Assembly: GCA_013153495.1 (NCBI GenBank)
Contig: JAADEH010000001.1
Span: 62,001-126,000 of the forward strand
Source of the DNA: Aquificota bacterium
Lineage (GTDB): Bacteria > Aquificota > Aquificia > Aquificales > Aquificaceae
DNA length: 64,000 nucleotides
Reading direction: 5' to 3'
The notes beneath the pieces are model-generated. The model had not been told where the DNA came from. It ran no database searches and worked only from the letters and a program-made list of their open reading frames with translations. Both the position numbers and the translations under genes were made by a program. Every line of letters begins with the position of its first letter. The stretch's first letter is position 1. Below are positions 45,254-49,053 of this stretch, piece by piece.

Positions 45254-45763
45254 GTGGCGCTTAGGCTGGGGGACATACTCAGGGAGGCGGGACTCACTGA
45301 GGTGGAAAAAGGCTTCCCCAAGTATGCGGTTGGATGGTATGAGGAGGAAAAACTCTGGAAAACTATAGAGCCTTTTCATTCTCGGGGCTGGAACCTTGTT
45401 AAACACCGTCCCTTCATGGTGGTGCACACGGACCCTCAATACGTTTACTTTATCCTCTTCTCTAAAAGTAGCTACATGTTCAGGTGCAGGAGAGACAAAG
45501 AATACGGTATAGAGGACAACACCCCGGAGGTGGACTTTCAAAAGTGCGACCTCAGAGACGAACTCCCCTGTTCTAAGCTCGAGGAAAAAGGAAAGCTCTT
45601 TAAGAGAATATTTGACGGCGACTGCTGGATAGTTTTGAGAATAAACAGGATGTTCTTGCAAGAGGGTAGCGTGGTATGTGGTGTGTGTTCTGGGGAGGCA
45701 ATCCCGCAGGTTGTCGAGGGCATTATTCAAAGGGAGCTTGAGAGGTGGAAGAGGATAGACTGA
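45254..45763 (+). CDS. Hypothetical 169-aa protein, first gene of the CRISPR-linked operon; weak MazF/PemK-like look
   Basis: GTG start; KHRPFMVVHTDPQYVYFILFSKSS; overlaps the next gene by 19 bp. Confidence 0.7.
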   Translation: MALRLGDILREAGLTEVEKGFPKYAVGWYEEEKLWKTIEPFHSRGWNLVKHRPFMVVHTDPQYVYFILFSKSSYMFRCRRDKEYGIEDNTPEVDFQKCDLRDELPCSKLEEKGKLFKRIFDGDCWIVLRINRMFLQEGSVVCGVCSGEAIPQVVEGIIQRELERWKRID

Positions 45764-46494
45764 GGCAACTTTTGGAGAGACTCTTAAATGGCAACATAAG
45801 TGAAAGGGAGTATAAGGCACTTGCAAGCTATCTTGCGGGTATGCTCAAAGGGGTGGCTGAGGGGATAGCTCTTGAGCGGGGGAAAGAAACGAATATCCTG
45901 AACCTTATAGGTAGAAGACTTCCCCAAGGAGAGAACGTTCTCGGGTATCTGGTAGAGGAACTTTTTGTTCACATACTCAGTAAAAGGGAAAGATTTAAAA
46001 ATCTCTTAGACGGAAACCAAAAGCTCAAAGCGTATCTTGCAACAACCGTAAGAAACTTCCTCTACGACACCTTCAACAAGCTCAATCGTAGTGTGGAAAC
46101 GGTTTTGGAAGATGACATCAAAACGGGAGACCCCCAGGAAGATGCGGATAGAACCCTGTCGGGTTCAAATATGGAAGTTTTTCTTAAAGATGTAAGGAGG
46201 GTCGAACTTTTGGAACTTGAAGAGCTGGTCTCGAAGCTCCTTAAAAAGGAGGAGTTTAAGTATCTATGCTATAAACTTGACTCGAAGCGTTATAAGTGCC
46301 TGTGGGAAGGCAGAAGCGATGATGCGGTTTATCAGGATTTCAGGAGAAAAGGAAGGGAGGTTATGAAAAAACTTGCAAAAGCTTTTAGAGAGGCAAATGT
46401 TAGAGAAGAGCTGTTTGAAAAATACACGAAAATATATCTGTCAGAGCTTTGTGAAAAACTCCGTTCAGAAATATGTAAGGGAGATGAAAAATGA
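45745..46494 (+). CDS. ECF-sigma-like protein (CalpS-like candidate)
   Basis: Region-2-like QKLKAYLATTVRNFLYDTFNKLNR; region-4-like SDDAVYQDFRRKGREVMKKLAKAFREA; ATGA overlap with the next gene. Confidence 0.7.
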   Translation: MEEDRLRQLLERLLNGNISEREYKALASYLAGMLKGVAEGIALERGKETNILNLIGRRLPQGENVLGYLVEELFVHILSKRERFKNLLDGNQKLKAYLATTVRNFLYDTFNKLNRSVETVLEDDIKTGDPQEDADRTLSGSNMEVFLKDVRRVELLELEELVSKLLKKEEFKYLCYKLDSKRYKCLWEGRSDDAVYQDFRRKGREVMKKLAKAFREANVREELFEKYTKIYLSELCEKLRSEICKGDEK

Positions 46495-47348
46495 CACCTC
46501 TTAAAAAGCTCTTGGAGCTTTATAAATCCATGCTTTACCAGAAGGAAGTGGAAGAGGTAGAACCTATAGAGGTAGAGGTCAAACCTATAATGGCTGAGGA
46601 CTTTAAAGATAATGCCTGCGTTCTTGAAGACCCCTCACCCGGGGACGTGGTGGAGATAGTGCCTTCCTACGACAACCTCGAGATGACCTTCCTCGTGCTC
46701 AGAGAGATAAACGGCTTTTATGAGGTCGTTCCCATGTCTCCCTTTTATCAGTTTGCCTCGCCGAGAGATGTTCTCGTTCTCGTCGAGGGAAGACCCTACA
46801 TAGTCCAGACAGAGCTGAGCTTCGACGTTCCGAAGAAAGATTTTACTCGCAGGTTCGGAAATGCGACCCTCTTTAAGGTAGGAGAGGTCGGCAGAGAAAC
46901 CCTCGAGAGGGTGAAGAGAGTGGCAAGGGGAGAAGAGGAAGGGGACGGAGGTATGGTAGGAGAAGTGAAGGAGGAATTCAAGCGACTTGAGGCAAAGAGA
47001 TGGTTTGCCGTCTTCACTTCCCAGATAGCTGAGGAGGAGGCTCTTCAAGAGCTTAGCACTCTTTTGGAAGAACTCAAAAGCGAGTTGCCTCTCTCCGCTT
47101 CCGAGCAAGAAGGTGTGAGGGGTAGGGTAGAAGGTCTCGAGTGGTTTTACGACGAGATAGACGAGGTTCTCGTTATACTTCCCGAAGATGAACTTGTAGG
47201 AAAGAAAAAGAAAGTTGTTCTGGAAGTTGAAGGAGAAGAAATAACCCTCTTCGAGGGTGAACTACCTTCCAAGATAGAGTTGCCTCTGAGGAAGGAGGCA
47301 TACAGCTATACCCTTCTGGAAAGGGGGTTAAAACTCAAAGATGCTTGA
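46491..47348 (+). CDS. 285-aa protein, candidate CalpT-like anti-sigma/protease substrate
   Basis: PSPGDVVEIVPSYDNLEMTFLVL beta-barrel-like N-half, acidic/Gly linker ARGEEEGDGG, then helical/beta C-half; sits between the sigma-like and Lon-SAVED genes with overlapping ends. Confidence 0.6.
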   Translation: MTPLKKLLELYKSMLYQKEVEEVEPIEVEVKPIMAEDFKDNACVLEDPSPGDVVEIVPSYDNLEMTFLVLREINGFYEVVPMSPFYQFASPRDVLVLVEGRPYIVQTELSFDVPKKDFTRRFGNATLFKVGEVGRETLERVKRVARGEEEGDGGMVGEVKEEFKRLEAKRWFAVFTSQIAEEEALQELSTLLEELKSELPLSASEQEGVRGRVEGLEWFYDEIDEVLVILPEDELVGKKKKVVLEVEGEEITLFEGELPSKIELPLRKEAYSYTLLERGLKLKDA

Positions 47349-49053
47349 AAGGCTAAACAATAACCGTATAGCGCACTACCTACAGAGTCTTATCCGAAGA
47401 AGTTCTCACCTGAGGGAGGAAGATTTAAAGGAAGTCCTCGAGTTTTTTCCCTTCTCTGTGAAAGAAGGAGAGGAAAATCCCAACTTTTATGCGGTAAAGC
47501 TCTTTAGAGAAGTTAAAGAGAAAGTAGACAAAAACACCCTCTCCCGCAAGCTTTCTGTGGATTTACAAACTGTTGAGAGCTTACTTTCCGCACAGAGCTT
47601 CGAGGTTTACTTCCCTGTAGCTAAAAGGGGGAAAGCCTTCCTTGCAAAGGCACTCGTAATTCCCCTCGGGGGTGAGACCTCTCTCATCTTAGAGGGTGTA
47701 TCCCAAAAGACCGTAAAGGCTCTCGAAAATCTGACGAATAAGAGGTTCTTTTTAACCTTTAGCAGGGGTTTTGATTTTAAAACCGACTCCTTTATGTTGG
47801 CTGTCTTCAGTGCTTTGTCCTTCGGAAAAAAAGCGGAAAACTTTGCCTTTACGGGGGTTCTTTCTGAGGAAGGACACATAGAGGAAGTTCAGCACGTGCG
47901 TGAGAAACTTGAAACGGCACGGAAGGAGAGAGTTCCCCTCGTGTTCCCTTCCGAGTGTATGAACAGAATAGAAAAACTCAGGGAGTTTATGGAAAATCTC
48001 ACAATTCCCGTTGCCATACTTCCTTCCGGCAGGGGTGGACTGAGCACGGAGATTTTCGAGAGGGAGTTTTCTTTTCAAAAAGAATACTTGGAAGAGGTTT
48101 TTCACATAGATGAAGGTCTCTTCTATACGGAGCCTTTTGAAAATACACTGAAGAGCTTTGAAAACTTTGCGGGCTGGATTGAGAAGCTCTCCCATAGGCT
48201 TGCGAGCCTTAAAGGTAAGGTGGATTTTAAAGTCGCTCTTACCTCTAAGGTTCTCATGATGTCTTTTCTTGCGGGAGTTAGGTTTTCTAAAGCAAGACTG
48301 AAGGTGGACTTTTACGAGCTTCGTAACCGAGAGGGATACTCAAAAGTTCTCAGTCTCGAGGACGACCTTCCCTGTGGAGGGGAAAAAAGGCTTATTGAAA
48401 GTTTCAAACCGGGAGGAGAGGTCAAGGAGGTTTTCATATCCACTTCCGAAAGACCAATTAAAGAAGGTAGGCTTCTGGTGCGCATTCCTTCGGGAGAAAA
48501 ACTCAATCGGAACTTACTCGAAACTGCCTGTCAGGTGAATGACCTTCTTAGGGGAGAAAATTTCGGATGCGTCCACCTGAAGATAGAAGCTCCCAACTCC
48601 TTTGCCTTCGCTCTGGGATACATGCTTGAGGACTATAAGTGCTTTATCCTCAATCACTTTTCAGCAGGTGAGTATGTTCCCGTTTACAGGATAGGGGGTG
48701 AAGGGAGGGGAAAGATTTATTTGCTGAATGCCTTTTCCATAAACATGCTTGAAAAGATGCCTGCTCACGTAGAGTTTGATGAGGTCTCCCTCGACGAAGT
48801 GCTTCAGCTTATAAGGGAGGAAGGCTTTAGGTCATACATATCTCATCTTTCTACCGCTCAGGTGCTTTCGGAGTTGTTGAAAGAGCAGGTGGAGCAAAAC
48901 CGTGTAAACATTAAGCTACCTCACGGTGCGAAGGCTGTTGTGTTTCAGCTAAAAGTCAGACCACCGGAAGGTGGTGTTTTCGGAGTGGAAGACCTGAAAG
49001 ATATAATCGAAAGGGGTCTCTTCTCCTTTTACAAGGTAAGGGTCTTTTACTGA
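47341..49053 (+). CDS. Lon-like protease - SAVED - DUF1874 (AcrIII-1/Crn2-type ring nuclease) fusion; CalpL-like
   Basis: Lon-like: KTDS150FMLAVFSALSFG...FTGVLSEEGHIEEVQHVREK189LETARKERVPLVFPSE; SAVED-like: NSFAFALGYMLEDYKCFILNHFSAGEYVPVYRI; DUF1874: KIYLLNAFSINMLEKMPAHVEFDEVSLDEVLQLIREEGFRSYISH502LSTAQVLSELLKEQVEQNRVNIKLPHGAKAVVFQLKVRPPEG. Confidence 0.8.
   Translation: MLERLNNNRIAHYLQSLIRRSSHLREEDLKEVLEFFPFSVKEGEENPNFYAVKLFREVKEKVDKNTLSRKLSVDLQTVESLLSAQSFEVYFPVAKRGKAFLAKALVIPLGGETSLILEGVSQKTVKALENLTNKRFFLTFSRGFDFKTDSFMLAVFSALSFGKKAENFAFTGVLSEEGHIEEVQHVREKLETARKERVPLVFPSECMNRIEKLREFMENLTIPVAILPSGRGGLSTEIFEREFSFQKEYLEEVFHIDEGLFYTEPFENTLKSFENFAGWIEKLSHRLASLKGKVDFKVALTSKVLMMSFLAGVRFSKARLKVDFYELRNREGYSKVLSLEDDLPCGGEKRLIESFKPGGEVKEVFISTSERPIKEGRLLVRIPSGEKLNRNLLETACQVNDLLRGENFGCVHLKIEAPNSFAFALGYMLEDYKCFILNHFSAGEYVPVYRIGGEGRGKIYLLNAFSINMLEKMPAHVEFDEVSLDEVLQLIREEGFRSYISHLSTAQVLSELLKEQVEQNRVNIKLPHGAKAVVFQLKVRPPEGGVFGVEDLKDIIERGLFSFYKVRVFY

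What the first reader, a model, noticed from the sequence alone, without database searches (positions are those of the whole stretch)
45254..49053. Candidate CRISPR-linked protease / anti-sigma / sigma-factor signalling operon (CalpS-CalpT-CalpL-like) with an extra first gene
Four genes overlap end to end (45763/45745, 46494/46491, 47348/47341), then cas6 starts 10 bp later, so they are almost certainly one transcript. The second gene looks like an ECF sigma factor. The third (285 aa, about 33 kDa) looks like a small beta-barrel plus a second domain joined by an acidic/Gly linker. The fourth is the Lon-SAVED fusion. This matches the logic of the CalpL/CalpT/CalpS system: a cyclic nucleotide activates the protease, the anti-sigma is cut, and the sigma is freed. 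The gene order is sigma, substrate, protease, preceded by an additional 169-aa gene I cannot place in that system.
Basis: partly seen in the sequence, partly recalled or inferred. Interest (0 to 1): 0.93.

Follow-up and report, generated by a model that had tools for sequence, protein, structure and literature searches.

The report
Self-timing CRISPR protease signalling operon
A heat-loving Aquificaceae bacterium carries a four-gene version of a known CRISPR alarm circuit (a protease that frees a transcription factor), in which the protease has gained its own built-in off-switch domain, and the 'extra' first gene turns out to be a conserved but unstudied fourth part of nearly every circuit of this type examined.

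Summary
Two points change.

(1) The protease is not just Lon-SAVED but Lon-SAVED-Crn2: its last ~114 residues are a DUF1874/AcrIII-1 ring-nuclease domain (PF08960, 5.7e-21) with the catalytic His kept. This architecture is one clade (11 fused against 23 canonical, support 100/100), seen only in Aquificales. In it the SAVED residues tied to canonical CalpL's own ring-nuclease activity are gone (H392 0/11 vs 22/23; H345 0/11 vs 23/23), while the Lon Ser-Lys dyad is intact (34/34). The off-switch seems to have moved from the sensor to an appended domain.

(2) The 'extra' 169-aa gene is not extra. Its profile gives 36 hits among 1,999 ORFs, all 36 beside calpS, in 35 of 36 loci, including the reference Sulfurihydrogenibium locus. 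It has an invariant RP and four conserved Cys, and moderate PemK/MazF-fold evidence. Published descriptions call Calp tripartite.

Mechanism here is by homology only: no Cas10 or RAMP gene was found in the 91.5%-complete assembly. Novelty: a new variant of a known kind, plus an overlooked conserved component.

The parts
45242..45247 (+). TATAAT, a vegetative -10-like hexamer 6 nt before the GTG start of gene 1; would give a nearly leaderless transcript
   Evidence: 10 of 33 Calp operons have such a hexamer close to the first start codon, against a mean of 4 in shuffles (maximum 14), so suggestive only
45254..45763 (+). Gene 1, 169 aa: conserved fourth Calp component; PemK/MazF-like fold proposed; invariant R52-P53, C98, C106, C142, near-invariant C145
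45745..46494 (+). CalpS homologue, 249 aa, divergent ECF-type sigma factor
46491..47348 (+). CalpT homologue, 285 aa, two-domain anti-sigma and protease substrate
47097..47102 (+). Proposed CalpT cut site, A203|S204 (ELPLSA|SEQEGV), giving 23.2 + 9.4 kDa
   Evidence: the exact bond is inferred
47341..49053 (+). CalpL-Crn2, 570 aa: Lon-SAVED-Crn2 protease
47341..48075 (+). N-terminal and Lon protease region; catalytic dyad S150 and K189
48103..48705 (+). SAVED region, divergent, lacking the equivalents of SsCalpL H392, H345, K364 and R361
48709..49050 (+). Crn2/AcrIII-1 (DUF1874) ring-nuclease domain; catalytic His is H502
49063..49851 (+). cas6
   Evidence: TIGR01877 over its cut-off
50451..51838 (-). 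cas2, cas1, second cas2
52145..52742 (.). CRISPR array, nine repeats

Best explanation
This is a Calp (CRISPR-associated Lon protease) signalling operon of a Crn2-fused subfamily, with a conserved fourth component. Proposed working: gene 1, CalpS, CalpT and the protease are made together. CalpT holds the sigma factor CalpS inactive and docks the protease. When a type III complex makes cA4, ligand binding assembles and activates the Lon domain, which cuts CalpT once between its two domains (about 23 + 9.4 kDa). The 23-kDa piece then ends in an LSA/LAA-like tail and is removed by ClpXP, freeing CalpS to redirect RNA polymerase. The C-terminal Crn2 domain destroys cA4, so each protease molecule carries its own timer; it replaces the ring-nuclease site that canonical CalpL has inside its SAVED domain. 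Gene 1 most likely belongs to the CalpS/CalpT complex or acts beside it as a PemK/MazF-like, probably zinc-binding protein. Shown here: genes, homology, domain make-up, conserved and lost residues, one origin of the fusion, near-universal linkage of gene 1. Inferred: ligand, activation, cleavage, degradation, ring-nuclease activity, role of gene 1.
For: Same order and homology to the reference Calp locus. Lon dyad 34/34. Crn2 domain with catalytic His. SAVED residues lost: H392 0/11 vs 22/23, H345 0/11 vs 23/23, K364 0/11 vs K or R in 23/23. Fused clade on one side of one branch, 100/100. CalpT fragment sizes. cas10 directly downstream of fused calpL in related loci, with a full III-A set in L037 and GGDD in L036, L037, L039. 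Gene 1: 36/36 profile hits beside calpS, 35/36 loci. Precedents: CalpL/T/S mechanism and SAVED ring nuclease (PMC11417357), Csx1-Crn2 self-limiting fusion (PMC7293037), Crn4 fused to TIR-SAVED (PMC12830947).
Against: No Cas10 or RAMP gene in the assembled genome, so a cA4 source is not shown; but the assembly is 91.5% complete and a CRISPR repeat lies about 240 nt from the end of contig C7. The fused-clade SAVED is so divergent that the ligand, or ligand binding itself, could have changed: H345A lowered protease activity in SsCalpL, and R361, K364 and K366 serve oligomerisation (PMC11417357). The H392 segment aligns with gaps in the fused set. The sigma-factor call is weak by Pfam and Foldseek.
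Confidence: 0.78

Rival explanations
1. The appended Crn2 domain is the working cA4 sensor as well as the timer: cA4 binding across a Crn2 dimer brings protease subunits together, and the divergent SAVED domain is now only a scaffold or binds another ligand.
For: SAVED positions for binding, catalysis and stacking are changed throughout the fused clade; Crn2 enzymes bind cA4 as dimers (PMC12409355).
Against: SAVED is still under constraint, with many invariant residues. In Csx1-Crn2 the effector's own sensor activates and Crn2 only limits (PMC7293037).
Confidence: 0.15
2. Gene 1 is a PemK/MazF-type ribonuclease, a second effector held in check by CalpT or CalpS and freed by the same cut.
For: PemK profile score 29.3 against a column-shuffled maximum of 15.0 and 14.6-16.1 for unrelated S and L; top viral-library Foldseek hit a PemK/MazF toxin at probability 0.95, with other PemK-like hits; the invariant R-P aligns with the RP of PemK, an Arg that from own knowledge is an active-site residue in E. 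coli MazF.
Against: No Pfam match in any member; no PemK among the listed PDB Foldseek hits; Foldseek E only 0.06; the PemK/MazF fold also occurs in non-toxic proteins such as CalpT.
Confidence: 0.25
3. Gene 1 is a structural or regulatory partner of CalpS (for example a zinc-binding adaptor for RNA polymerase or a chaperone), with no nuclease activity.
For: Tight linkage and usual overlap with calpS itself; four-Cys pattern.
Against: No sequence link to any known RNA polymerase-binding family.
Confidence: 0.4
4. In this organism the operon is an orphan without a cA4 source, either decaying or borrowed by another signalling system.
For: No Cas10, RAMP or SMODS gene found.
Against: All four ORFs intact with catalytic residues kept; cas6, cas1, cas2 and several arrays present; incomplete assembly, with one repeat near a contig end.
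Confidence: 0.15

Closest known systems
CalpL/CalpT/CalpS of Sulfurihydrogenibium sp. YO3AOP1 (PDB 7qda, 8b0r; PMC11417357)
   Same: Same gene order; homologous S, T and Lon-SAVED; Lon Ser-Lys dyad; 23 + 10 kDa type split of CalpT; a gene 1 homologue also lies upstream of calpS there (L044:5293-5838)
   Different: No Crn2 domain; SAVED is itself the ring nuclease; linked to III-B cmr genes, while the fused kind adjoins III-A in relatives; described in papers as tripartite
Csx1-Crn2 of Marinitoga piezophila (PMC7293037)
   Same: cA4-activated effector with a C-terminal Crn2 ring nuclease, self-limiting
   Different: Effector is a CARF-HEPN RNase, not a SAVED-controlled protease
Crn4 fused to TIR-SAVED (PMC12830947)
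   Same: Ring nuclease appended to a SAVED effector
   Different: Another ring-nuclease family and another effector domain
AcrIII-1 / STIV B116 (PDB 2j85, 2x4i, 6scf)
   Same: Homologous domain with aligned catalytic His
   Different: Stand-alone viral anti-CRISPR; here part of a host effector
PADLOC C3a162 (PDLC01080, 'unknown function')
   Same: The reference-locus homologue of gene 1 matches at 2.3e-60; 10 of 34 family members match
   Different: The model does not detect the window protein or most of the family, and carries no function
PemK/MazF toxins (PF02452)
   Same: Profile and fold resemblance of gene 1
   Different: No Pfam match; four conserved Cys; no RNase activity shown

Membership tests
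Calp system | Lon-SAVED protease with Ser-Lys dyad | tested here: met
Calp system | CalpT homologue with two domains | tested here: met
   PADLOC CRISPR-T 9.6e-9; profile to SsCalpT 9.8e-10
Calp system | CalpS homologue | tested here: met
   Profile to SsCalpS 1.8e-23
Calp system | Order S-T-L in one operon | tested here: met
Calp system | Type III Cas10 with cyclase in the genome | tested here: inconclusive
   None in the 91.5% complete assembly; present beside the block in relatives
Calp system | cA4-activated cleavage of CalpT releasing CalpS | not testable with these tools
   Needs biochemistry; predicted fragment masses agree with published ones
CalpL with intrinsic SAVED ring nuclease | SAVED H392/H345 and basic bottom-side residues | tested here: not met
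   H392 0/11, H345 0/11, K364 0/11 in the fused clade
Crn2/AcrIII-1 ring nuclease | DUF1874 (PF08960) domain over cut-off | tested here: met
   5.7e-21, 75 bits, cut-off 26
Crn2/AcrIII-1 ring nuclease | Catalytic His | tested here: met
   H502, invariant in the fused set
Crn2/AcrIII-1 ring nuclease | cA4 degradation | not testable with these tools
   Needs biochemistry
ECF sigma factor | Sigma70 region 2 and region 4 models over cut-off | tested here: not met
   Sigma70_r2 15 bits vs 24; no region 4 match
ECF sigma factor | Two-domain helical sigma fold | tested here: inconclusive
   AF2 pLDDT 74, pTM 0.48; two best Foldseek hits are ECF sigmas, E about 0.5
PemK/MazF (gene 1) | PF02452 match | tested here: not met
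PemK/MazF (gene 1) | PemK fold | tested here: inconclusive
   For. Against:
PemK/MazF (gene 1) | RNase activity | not testable with these tools
   Needs biochemistry

The most novel reading that the evidence does not exclude
Calp is generally a four-component system. Its overlooked first protein is a zinc-bearing PemK/MazF-type ribonuclease kept in check by the MazF-like anti-sigma CalpT, so that one cA4-triggered cut releases both a sigma factor and an RNase. In Aquificales the protease then ends the signal itself with an appended Crn2 domain that took over from a lost SAVED ring-nuclease site.
Probability: 0.2. Interest if true: 0.88.

Novelty: new variant of a known kind. Interest (0 to 1): 0.74.

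Why it matters
Calp links CRISPR detection of foreign RNA to sigma-factor control of transcription and is described as a three-protein system. A fourth gene locked to calpS in 35 of 36 loci, including the crystallised reference system, means that reconstitutions so far may lack a part. The Lon-SAVED-Crn2 clade is a natural experiment in how an immune signal is switched off: one protease family exists with the ring nuclease inside the sensor and with it moved to a separate domain, so the timer can be tested by single mutations (H502 here, H392 there).

Tried and rejected
Apparent CalpT-CalpL fusion in G052 (L225): an assembly gap of N's inside the ORF, rejected. PF22335 palm-domain hits in the own genome: the hit at window 33858-34097 lies in a GGDEF-type protein (32706-34139), not Cas10; the other hits were not opened, but Csm1 and RAMP searches found no type III complex. 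Another cyclic-nucleotide source: no SMODS nucleotidyltransferase found. Gene 1 as a paralogue of CalpT: no significant profile match. Mobile-element copies: no gene 1 match in phages, no CalpL match in plasmids. 242-aa ORF at 49735-50463 as a degenerate Cas1: no family match, BLAST E 0.067 to the neighbouring Cas1, left open. PDB Foldseek of gene 1 gave nothing usable. An ECF-type promoter shared by the operons was looked for by eye only; a TATAAT-like hexamer near the start is commoner than in shuffles (10 vs mean 4 of 33) but not beyond their maximum of 14. Later rounds of the CalpT profile picked up CalpL proteins because the gapped L225 ORF entered the alignment, so T evidence is taken from the first-round profile. 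Prediction of protein complexes was not available.
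Full report
Observation. The four ORFs lie at the stated coordinates with the stated overlaps, followed after 9 nt by cas6. On the opposite strand are cas2, cas1 and a second cas2, then a nine-repeat CRISPR array at 52145-52742. The window's genome (G000) is an assembly of 1.59 Mb in 12 contigs, 91.5% complete; genomes of its own genus found by search carry the block and are deposited as Aquificaceae MAGs.

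The protease is trimodular. Protein 4 matches the Lon-SAVED models (PADLOC SAVED_LON_TM 7e-46, CRISPR-Lon 2.5e-40) and CalpL of PDB 7qda over residues 12-248 (5.3e-16). Residues 457-570 are a separate domain: PF08960 STIV_B116-like, 5.7e-21, 75 bits against a cut-off of 26, with PDB matches to STIV B116, 2x4i, AFV3-109 and 6scf at E-values of 3e-13 to 3e-16. These are AcrIII-1/Crn2 (DUF1874) ring nucleases. H502 aligns with a His in three of the four structures; in 6scf the position reads Ala, which from own knowledge is the catalytic-His mutant of AcrIII-1. H502 is invariant in the fused set.

Distribution and origin of the fusion. Whole-genome search gave full-length 560-593 aa homologues in other Aquificales genomes. 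Named-genome and metagenome scans found Lon-SAVED-Crn2 only in Aquificae MAGs and a few metagenome contigs; hits elsewhere, viruses included, covered the Crn2 domain. A tree of the Lon-SAVED part puts the 11 fused proteins on one side of one branch with 100/100 support and the 23 canonical ones on the other. G023 and G034 hold both kinds.

Active-site relocation. Canonical CalpL degrades cA4 in its SAVED domain; mutation of H392 strongly attenuates this, and R361, K364 and K366 on the other face are also needed (PMC11417357). In an alignment of 23 canonical and 11 fused proteins, Lon S152 and K193 are conserved in all 34. H392 is His in 22/23 canonical and 0/11 fused; H345 in 23/23 and 0/11; K364 is Lys or Arg in 23/23 canonical and neither in the 11 fused; R361 is Arg in 23/23 and 8/11, with the window among those lacking it. 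The H392 segment aligns with gaps in the fused set, so the exact column is uncertain, but the conserved [S/H]-H motif is not seen there. Conversely the SsCalpL H474 position (mostly Asn in canonical) is His in 11/11 fused. The simplest reading is that ring-nuclease function passed from SAVED to the appended Crn2 domain. A changed ligand, or Crn2 as the sensor, is kept as a rival because the same SAVED residues also serve binding and oligomerisation.

CalpT. Protein 3 matches PADLOC CRISPR-T (9.6e-9), and the profile of the fused-clade T family matches SsCalpT at 9.8e-10. An alignment of 29 members shows a small conserved Ala-containing motif between the two domains. Splitting there gives 23.2 + 9.4 kDa for the window and 23.1 + 8.7 kDa for SsCalpT, against published CalpT23 and CalpT10 (PMC12751052). 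The new C-terminus (LSA, LAA or LVA in the family) resembles a ClpXP degron, the route proposed in the literature (PMC11417357). The exact bond is inferred.

CalpS. Pfam Sigma70_r2 reaches only 15 bits (cut-off 24), and 5 of 31 family members match it weakly. The profile of the S family matches SsCalpS at 1.8e-23. The AF2 model (pLDDT 74, pTM 0.48) has two helical regions and a low-confidence linker; the two best PDB hits are ECF sigma factors, AlgU and M. tuberculosis SigL, at E about 0.5. So it is a CalpS homologue, and its sigma nature rests on that kinship.

Gene 1 is a conserved fourth component. Starting from seven fused-clade sequences, an iterated profile run over 1,999 ORFs from Calp loci found 36 hits. 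All 36 lie beside calpS, with gaps of -61 to +3 nt in 35, and 35 of 36 loci with calpS have it, G015 being the exception. A few of these loci are overlapping records of one genome or near-copies, so the number of independent loci is slightly lower. The set includes L044, the Sulfurihydrogenibium locus whose CalpL is identical to 7qda, where the homologue is L044:5293-5838. G052 has two tandem copies. The family has an invariant Arg-Pro, three invariant Cys and one near-invariant Cys in 34 sequences, no Pfam family and no PDB relative by sequence. Ten of 34 members match PADLOC model C3a162, 'unknown function', so part of the family had been catalogued as type III-linked. The papers I could read describe Calp as CalpL/T/S only; the original Nature paper was not held and the Mol Cell filament paper was not read, so a mention there cannot be excluded.

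What gene 1 might be. AF2 gives a fairly confident model (pLDDT 85.4, pTM 0.81). PDB Foldseek is uninformative. In the viral library the best hit is a PemK/MazF toxin (probability 0.95, E 0.06, TMt 0.57), with two more PemK-like proteins and an endoribonuclease among the first 28. hhalign against PemK proteins of Aquificales gives 29.3 (maximum of 60 column shuffles 15.0), against 20.8 for CalpT, a published MazF homologue, and 14.6 and 16.1 for the unrelated S and L profiles. The aligned stretch is RPFMVVHT...LFSKS against RYAVVVS...PITSK. This supports a PemK-like fold at moderate confidence and leaves activity open.

Source of the signal. No RAMP, Csm1 or SMODS gene was found in G000, while 8 of the 12 other genomes tested that hold the block or its Crn2 domain have RAMPs. 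Three arrays of one repeat type are present, and a single further repeat lies about 240 nt from the end of contig C7, so the type III genes may fall in an assembly gap. In related loci L034-L037 and L039 the fused calpL is followed directly by cas10. In L037 this is a full type III-A set, cas10-csm2-csm3-csm4-csm5, and L036, L037 and L039 keep the cyclase GGDD. The reference canonical locus L044 is III-B.

Verdict. The work is based on sequences and models; no biochemical step was shown.

Noticed in passing
window 49735-50463 (-): 242-aa ORF between cas6 and a second cas2 with no family match; faint similarity to the neighbouring Cas1 (E 0.067) hints at a divergent or degenerate Cas1.
   Followed up: partly
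window 50451-50705 and 51578-51838 (-): Two different cas2 genes flank one cas1.
   Followed up: no
G000 contigs C1:49460-49840, C5:93993-94758, C7:42626-42650: Further places with the same CRISPR repeat; no cas genes evident beside those on C1 and C5, and the C7 repeat is about 240 nt from the contig end.
   Followed up: partly
window 45745-46494, residues about 175-241: In the Crn2-fused clade CalpS has four conserved cysteines (KYxCY, YKCLW, LSExCE, and one near the end); only two of them are shared with canonical CalpS. Possible metal site.
   Followed up: no
L225:5159-6096 (G052): Two tandem copies of the gene 1 family before calpS.
   Followed up: partly
G023 and G034: Genomes with both a Crn2-fused and a canonical CalpL; in G034 the fused one adjoins III-A genes and the canonical one lies by RAMP genes on another contig, so subtype-specific Calp branches may coexist.
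   Followed up: partly
G067:C74:1824-2174, G046:C39:1374-1712, G040:C114 and C7: Crn2-type ORFs without Lon-SAVED in Aquificota genomes (open frames of 110-216 aa): possible stand-alone ring nucleases, or relatives of the domain that was fused.
   Followed up: no
window 43041-45321 (-): Divergent hydrogenase-like gene pair directly upstream of the Calp operon; the two gene sets face away from each other across a very short intergenic region.
   Followed up: no
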